A stretch of DNA of 30,746 nucleotides. It comes from a virus. The notes under the pieces were generated by a model that ran no database searches, was not told the origin of the DNA, and saw nothing but the letters and a program-made list of their open reading frames with translations. A program made the position numbers and the translations under genes. This document shows, one piece after another, positions 15,187 through 15,321 of the stretch. The stretch lies in IMG/VR virus record IMGVR_UViG_3300009156_000412, positions 1 through 30,746 of that record; one strand, 5' to 3'. The first letter of the stretch is position 1. Each line of letters opens with the position of its first letter.

Positions 15187-15321
15187 GCGGCGGGCGTGGT
15201 GTGAAGATCGGTGTTTTAGCGCTCTACCACTGAGCTACGTCACCTTGACGGTGACGGCTGGATTTGAACCAGCGACCTCTCTCTTATCAGGAGATAACCG
15301 ATGCCTCTCCGGCCCAACCGC
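15187..15321 (-). ncRNA. Y RNA-like RNA 1 with circularly permuted tRNA domain
   Basis: Outer stem GCGG/CCGC with a TT/G internal loop and GGGC/GCCC. Inner helix ATCGGT (15302-15297) pairs with ACCGAT (15212-15207), and GGTTATC is at 15299-15293. Then in order: an anticodon-like arm TCTC-CTGATAA-GAGA (15294-15280), the T arm GCTGG-TTCAAAT-CCAGC (15273-15257), the acceptor 3' strand CGTCACC joined through loop GTCAA to the acceptor 5' strand GGTGACG (15256-15238, 7 perfect pairs), TA, and a D arm with GG in its loop (15235-15221). This is a complete tRNA cut open between D and anticodon arms. 3' strand CACACCACGCCC, then CCTTTT. Confidence 0.9.

What the first reader, a model, noticed from the sequence alone, without database searches (positions are those of the whole stretch)
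15187..15321. A complete circularly permuted tRNA inside Y RNA 1
The order is anticodon-like arm (loop CTGATAA, triplet GAT), T arm, acceptor 3' strand, GTCAA loop, acceptor 5' strand, TA, D arm. The acceptor has seven perfect pairs. The tRNA is opened between the D and anticodon arms and the Ro-binding stem is attached there. The retained U33-like base and purines 3' of the triplet make the arm look like a real anticodon loop (Ile-type GAT). It could attract tRNA-modifying enzymes, anticodon nucleases or PNPase.
Basis: partly seen in the sequence, partly recalled or inferred. Interest (0 to 1): 0.8.

Follow-up and report, generated by a model that had tools for sequence, protein, structure and literature searches.

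The report
Phage Y RNA with permuted tRNA
A phage gene for a small RNA that binds the Ro60 protein carries a whole transfer-RNA shape in scrambled order, including a real anticodon-type hairpin, and the same overlooked design turns up beside Ro60 genes in many other phages and bacteria.

Summary
On the minus strand at 15183-15323 lies a Y RNA, first of seven Y RNAs upstream of a phage Ro60 gene (12756-14342). Its insert reads anticodon-type arm, V loop, T arm, acceptor 3' strand, loop, acceptor 5' strand, TA, D arm: a tRNA opened between positions 26 and 27, with the Ro stem grafted there. A permuted tRNA mimic in a bacterial Y RNA is already known (YrlA, PDB 6CU1), but the Rfam YrlA model has no closed anticodon arm. 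Among 60 permuted units beside phage Ro genes, 35 have the closed arm (shuffles: mean 2.2, maximum 11); in 80 cellular Ro loci, 27 of 50 (shuffles 1.9). The inner arm pairs covary, U33 is nearly invariant, position 37 follows position 36 as in real tRNAs. The triplet is the most variable part and does not match the isotype of the tRNA body, so 'Ile-type' is literal only. Single-sequence folding of the window RNA disfavours the arm (p about 0.01), so its formation rests on comparison. Best reading: a Ro-RNP scaffold whose complete tRNA mimic recruits tRNA-binding proteins. Function is untested. New variant of a known kind.

The parts
15183..15323 (-). Y RNA 1 (the finding): Ro-binding stem plus complete circularly permuted tRNA with closed anticodon-type arm (class I)
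15293..15321 (-). Ro-binding 5' strand GCGGUUGGGCCGGAGAGGCAUCGGUUAUC (conserved GGGCCGGA...UCGGUUAYC)
15280..15294 (-). anticodon-type arm UCUC-CUGAUAA-GAGA (4 bp, 7-nt loop, U33, triplet GAU, A37, A38); its 5' UC overlaps the end of the GGUUAUC motif
   Evidence: weak in single-sequence folding
15257..15273 (-). T arm GCUGG-UUCAAAU-CCAGC
15238..15256 (-). closed acceptor hairpin CGUCACC-GUCAA-GGUGACG (acceptor 3' strand, loop, acceptor 5' strand)
15221..15235 (-). D arm GCUC-AGUGGUA-GAGC (preceded by UA = positions 8-9, 15236-15237)
15183..15212 (-). Ro-binding 3' strand (ACCGAUCUUCACACCACGCCCGCCGC) and start of the T-rich tail
15105..15181 (-). Y RNA 2, short, no tRNA module
15028..15101 (-). 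Y RNA 3, short, no tRNA module
14856..14994 (-). Y RNA 4; holds the module that ARAGORN and Rfam call tRNA-Ser(AGA) (14886-14956); acceptor 5' strand pairs upstream (CCGC-UAAUUG-GCGG), so opened between T arm and acceptor
14718..14843 (-). Y RNA 5: T arm and closed acceptor hairpin, no D arm
   Evidence: elements read from sequence
14541..14701 (-). Y RNA 6: T arm, acceptor hairpin, D-like hairpin, extra 9-bp hairpin
14373..14489 (-). Y RNA 7, next to the Ro gene; promoter-like site 14522-14495 upstream
12756..14342 (-). Ro60/Rsr homologue (TROVE + vWA_Ro60; likely start ATG MAKQHLL after AAGGAGG; the ORF list starts at GTG 14417)

Best explanation
A phage-encoded Ro60 ribonucleoprotein. The Ro protein binds the conserved stem of each Y RNA. 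In Y RNA 1 the effector end is a complete tRNA fold, opened between positions 26 and 27, with acceptor ends sealed by a five-base loop, so it cannot be charged. It works as a scaffold: the tRNA-shaped end is recognised (and probably modified, as YrlA is by TruB and DusA) by proteins that bind tRNA and tethers them to Ro; the likeliest partner is the host exonuclease PNPase, by analogy with known bacterial Y RNAs. The closed anticodon arm, absent from the YrlA model, completes the mimic so that proteins which grip the anticodon arm can bind too. Shown: anatomy, covariation, recurrence beside Ro genes. Inferred: RNA expression, Ro binding, partner, role.
For: Seven Y RNA units with the same Ro stem directly upstream of a Ro60 homologue. 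RNAalifold on 34 class I units from diverse phages recovers Ro stem, T, acceptor and D helices, 23 of 25 pairs with compensatory change. Closed arm in 35/60 phage units versus 2.2 in shuffles and in 27/50 cellular units versus 1.9; inner stem covaries; U33 in 60/60 called arms (62/70 unselected), A38 53/60, R37 56/60; G36-G37 association p = 5e-6 and depletion of A34 and of illegal anticodons. Class I and class II never coincide in one phage unit. YrlA is a TruB/DusA substrate and Y RNA tethers Rsr to PNPase according to PMC8394870; Y RNA as a circularly permuted tRNA fold, PMC11472068.
Against: No expression, binding or probing data. Minimum-energy folding of the window RNA prefers a slipped hairpin over the anticodon arm. 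The arm stem is only 3-4 pairs; A32 occurs in 7 of 25 phage loops but in 0 of 183 real phage tRNAs. The triplet is hypervariable and not isotype-coherent, which argues against recognition of one fixed anticodon. PNPase binding is by analogy only. Loop identity to real phage tRNAs was only mildly above chance (9/25 versus 5.0, p = 0.025; permuted triplets p = 0.16).
Confidence: 0.6

Rival explanations
1. Decoy for anticodon nucleases: the exposed anticodon loop on a stable RNP competes for, or is cut instead of tRNAs by, host or rival tRNA-cleaving toxins. Variable triplets would follow the arms race.
For: U33/R37/A38 frame conserved while the triplet is the most variable part, even on one stem sequence TACCA/TGG in related hosts; illegal anticodons depleted. 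PMC7790460 proposes for YrlA that its tRNA-like domain could act as a competitive inhibitor of an anticodon nuclease. Ro-bearing phages Emma1919 and NootNoot carry RNA ligase and polynucleotide kinase, Trina a polynucleotide kinase.
Against: The same arm is frequent in cellular Ro loci, where a phage counter-defence is not needed; PMC7790460 found YrlA itself uncut; no nuclease tested.
Confidence: 0.2
2. The arm is only a structural cap: a U-turn hairpin that helps fold or stack the junction, with a free loop apex; no protein reads it.
For: U33, A38 and the stem are conserved while the triplet is free; body and triplet are not isotype-coherent.
Against: Position 37 tracks position 36 and A34 is avoided as in real tRNAs, not expected for a free apex.
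Confidence: 0.25
3. Recent capture: tRNA genes inserted or copied into Y RNAs and decaying, so tRNA features are inherited, not selected.
For: Y RNA 4 still scores 48 bits as tRNA; tRNA genes lie near many Ro loci.
Against: The same permutation recurs in very diverse phages and bacteria with covarying stems.
Confidence: 0.07
4. The anticodon-type arm does not form; the Y motif UUAUC pairs with GAUAA (UUAUC-UCCU-GAUAA) or a slipped GAG hairpin forms instead.
For: Both alternatives are possible in the window and the slipped one is the minimum-energy structure.
Against: The UUAUC/GAUAA pairing is lost in relatives (e.g. CUACUAA, CUGCUAA loops), whereas the 7-nt loop arm is kept and covaries.
Confidence: 0.08

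Closest known systems
YrlA (Rfam RF02553; S. Typhimurium structure 6CU1)
   Same: Ro-binding stem; T arm, closed acceptor hairpin, UA, D arm in the same permuted order; neighbours a Ro60 gene. RF02553 matches 15218-15280 at 34.8 bits, E 1.2e-5.
   Different: All phage hits stay below the gathering score of 69. In the YrlA consensus the Ro stem runs on into an open anticodon stem (gcc/ggc); there is no closed arm. Y RNA 1 has a closed 7-nt-loop arm and is opened at 26/27.
tRNA-Ile(GAU)
   Same: anticodon loop CUGAUAA identical to phage tRNA-Ile(GAU) loops; unpermuted order is called tRNA-Ile(gat) by ARAGORN
   Different: sealed acceptor, no CCA end, permuted order, 4-bp anticodon stem; body not Ile-like; ARAGORN also accepts 65% of controls with shuffled arms
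Class II permuted Y RNA units (e.g. L040, L043, L070, L002@3086, L192@2396)
   Same: same Ro motifs and T-acceptor-D core, often in the same array or locus
   Different: anticodon stem formed by two separated strands, no anticodon loop

Membership tests
bacterial Y RNA (Ro60-associated) | conserved Ro-binding stem formed by the two ends, with GGxCxGA...GGUUAYC 5' motif | tested here: met
   motif and stem in all seven units and in 34 aligned relatives, covarying
bacterial Y RNA (Ro60-associated) | gene next to a Ro60/Rsr gene | tested here: met
   TROVE + vWA_Ro60 protein; best solved relative Rsr 2NVO, E 1e-106
bacterial Y RNA (Ro60-associated) | RNA is expressed and bound by Ro | not testable with these tools
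   no transcript or binding data
YrlA (RF02553) | score at or above the Rfam gathering threshold (69 bits) | tested here: not met
   34.8 bits; 0 of 9 related records over the cut-off
YrlA (RF02553) | T arm, closed acceptor hairpin, D arm in permuted order | tested here: met
YrlA (RF02553) | Ro stem continues through an open anticodon stem (gcc/ggc), no closed anticodon arm | tested here: not met
   closed arm instead; the model helix there is mismatched in class I hits
tRNA gene | free acceptor end with CCA, standard order | tested here: not met
   acceptor closed by GUCAA; ARAGORN does not call it in native order
tRNA anticodon arm | 7-nt loop with U33, purine 37, covarying stem, 9-10 nt before the T arm | tested here: met
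   stem 4 of 5 pairs in the window
PNPase-tethering Y RNA (RYPER) | binds PNPase | not testable with these tools
   analogy to known bacterial Y RNA only (PMC8394870)

The most novel reading that the evidence does not exclude
Ro60 RNPs of phages and bacteria carry a whole class of permuted tRNA mimics with a genuine, rapidly changing anticodon loop. The array opens the tRNA at different points in different units (26/27, anticodon stem, T/acceptor, D loop), making a bank of tRNA decoys or baits that intercept anticodon-reading enzymes such as anticodon nucleases.
Probability: 0.2. Interest if true: 0.85.

Novelty: new variant of a known kind. Interest (0 to 1): 0.62.

Why it matters
Known bacterial Y RNAs were described as tRNA mimics with D, T and acceptor parts. 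A second, widespread architecture that keeps a complete anticodon arm with a hypervariable triplet gives a concrete, testable handle on an open question: what bacterial and phage Ro60 particles bind and do. It suggests partners that read the anticodon arm, and a link to tRNA damage, RNA repair and phage-host conflict. It also warns that tRNA finders mislabel parts of Y RNAs as tRNA genes.

Tried and rejected
ARAGORN on un-permuted modules as tRNAs, but 65% of controls with shuffled arms also pass, so it is weak evidence. Isotype coherence of body and triplet: rejected (2/35 versus 1.9; top-five weakly up, 12 versus 6.5, p = 0.012). Identity of loops to real phage tRNA loops: only mildly above chance. 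RNAalifold on the free MAFFT alignment misses the arm because the 9/10-nt spacing is misaligned; a fixed-length alignment was used instead, from units preselected by arm pairing, so the unselected shuffle test carries the claim. The scanner for units opened between T arm and acceptor is swamped by real tRNAs with chance 4-bp hairpins; only the Y RNA 4 type stands out. D-loop-opened type found once (L003). Primary YrlA papers (PMC4201824, PMC6281776, PMC6047535, PMC10870794) are not in the library, so whether a closed anticodon arm was noted there could not be checked.

Full report
SETTING. The window is a phage record (IMG/VR, 30,746 bases) with a terminase. A Ro60 homologue lies at 12756-14342 on the minus strand (TROVE 6e-43 and vWA_Ro60 7e-48; nearest solved relative Rsr of 2NVO, E 1e-106). 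Directly upstream, on the same strand, lie seven Y RNA units, each with the motif GGGCCGGA...GGUUAUC (or a close variant) and a matching 3' strand. The finding is the first unit.

OBSERVATION. T, acceptor and D helices are perfect and stable. A scanner for this permuted core had one hit in 893 kb of resampled sequence.

IS THE ANTICODON ARM REAL? In the window alone, no strong case: a slipped hairpin is favoured and the arm has probability about 0.01. Relatives decide. Ro loci were fetched from named phages, IMG/VR and bacterial genomes. Of 60 distinct permuted units in phage loci, 35 have a 7-nt loop with U33 closed by at least three pairs 9-10 nt before the T arm; shuffled upstream sequence gives 2.2 on average and 11 at most in 2000 trials. 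In 34 distinct arms the three inner pairs are always formed, with 40 double changes; the covariation score is 1.03 against 0.29 in column shuffles and below 0.22 when slid. These 34 were preselected for pairing, so one search is the fair test. The cellular loci, a second set, give 27 of 50 against 1.9.

IS THE LOOP TRNA-LIKE? Over 60 distinct arms position 33 is always U (62 of 70 when U33 is not demanded), 38 is A in 53, 37 is a purine in 56, and 34-36 are the most variable loop positions. G37 goes with G36 (p = 5e-6), A34 is rare (2/60 versus 26/120 at 35-36), and triplets that bacterial tRNAs do not normally use are depleted (4/60 versus about 11; weaker per distinct loop). But A32 is found in 7 of 25 phage loops and in none of 183 real phage tRNAs, and the tRNA body does not match the isotype of the triplet. 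So it is an anticodon-type hairpin with a free triplet, not an Ile mimic.

TWO ARCHITECTURES. Class I (this finding) is opened at 26/27 and keeps a closed arm. Class II is opened in the anticodon stem: its strands lie on either side of the insert and pair with each other, 13 phage units. No phage class I unit also has the open stem. Cellulomonas-type loci L171, L185, L191 and L192 carry one of each. The Rfam YrlA consensus has the class II topology; class I sequences hit it below threshold with that helix unpaired. Within the window array Y RNA 4 has a third order (closed acceptor, D, anticodon, T arm), shared with L002; L003 has a variant without T arm and one unit opened in the D loop.

WHAT IS KNOWN. 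A circular permutation between a bacterial Y RNA (6CU1) and tRNA is published (PMC11472068). YrlA is reported as a substrate of DusA and TruB, and Y RNA as the tether between Rsr and PNPase (PMC8394870). A competitive-inhibitor role against an anticodon nuclease has been suggested for YrlA (PMC7790460). TROVE proteins in jumbo phages have been placed among RNA repair functions (PMC7824862). I found no held paper on Y RNAs with a closed anticodon arm, but the primary YrlA papers are not held.

MECHANISM. Shown: anatomy, association with Ro, covariation, wide recurrence. Inferred: transcription from this array, Ro binding, recruitment of tRNA-binding proteins. I favour a scaffold or tether; decoy and passive cap are live rivals.

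Noticed in passing
window 14886-14956 (-), L001 2963-3032, L002 2774-2844: The tRNA-Ser(AGA) called by ARAGORN and Rfam lies inside Y RNA 4; its acceptor 5' strand pairs with upstream sequence (CCGC/GCGG; in L002 CCAGC/GCUGG), not with its 3' end, so it is a Y RNA module and not a tRNA gene.
   Followed up: partly
L003 2904-3020: A Y RNA whose tRNA module seems opened in the D loop: GAGC strand first, then anticodon hairpin, V, T arm, acceptor hairpin, AA, GCUC. Single case.
   Followed up: partly
L007 2244-2322 (prophiGD43A-5): Annotated tRNA-Thr(tgt) is the 5' part of a class I Y RNA.
   Followed up: partly
L171, L185, L191, L192 (Cellulomonas and a relative): Each Ro gene is preceded by one class II and one class I Y RNA; class I triplets differ between species on the same stem.
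   Followed up: partly
L117, L118 (Streptomyces phages Emma1919, NootNoot); L115 (Trina): Ro-bearing phages also carry RNA ligase and polynucleotide kinase genes (Trina: kinase seen) beside large tRNA sets.
   Followed up: no
window upstream of Y1, Y5, Y6, Y7; L002 and L003 likewise: TANNNT boxes about 12-15 nt before many Y RNA starts and T-rich tails after the basal stem suggest separate transcription units.
   Followed up: no
L021 (Mycobacterium phage Iota): Ro gene annotated as two overlapping ORFs.
   Followed up: no
window 15552-22085 (-): UDP-glucose/GDP-mannose dehydrogenase, methyltransferase, family 2 glycosyltransferases and a papain-type peptidase cluster.
   Followed up: no
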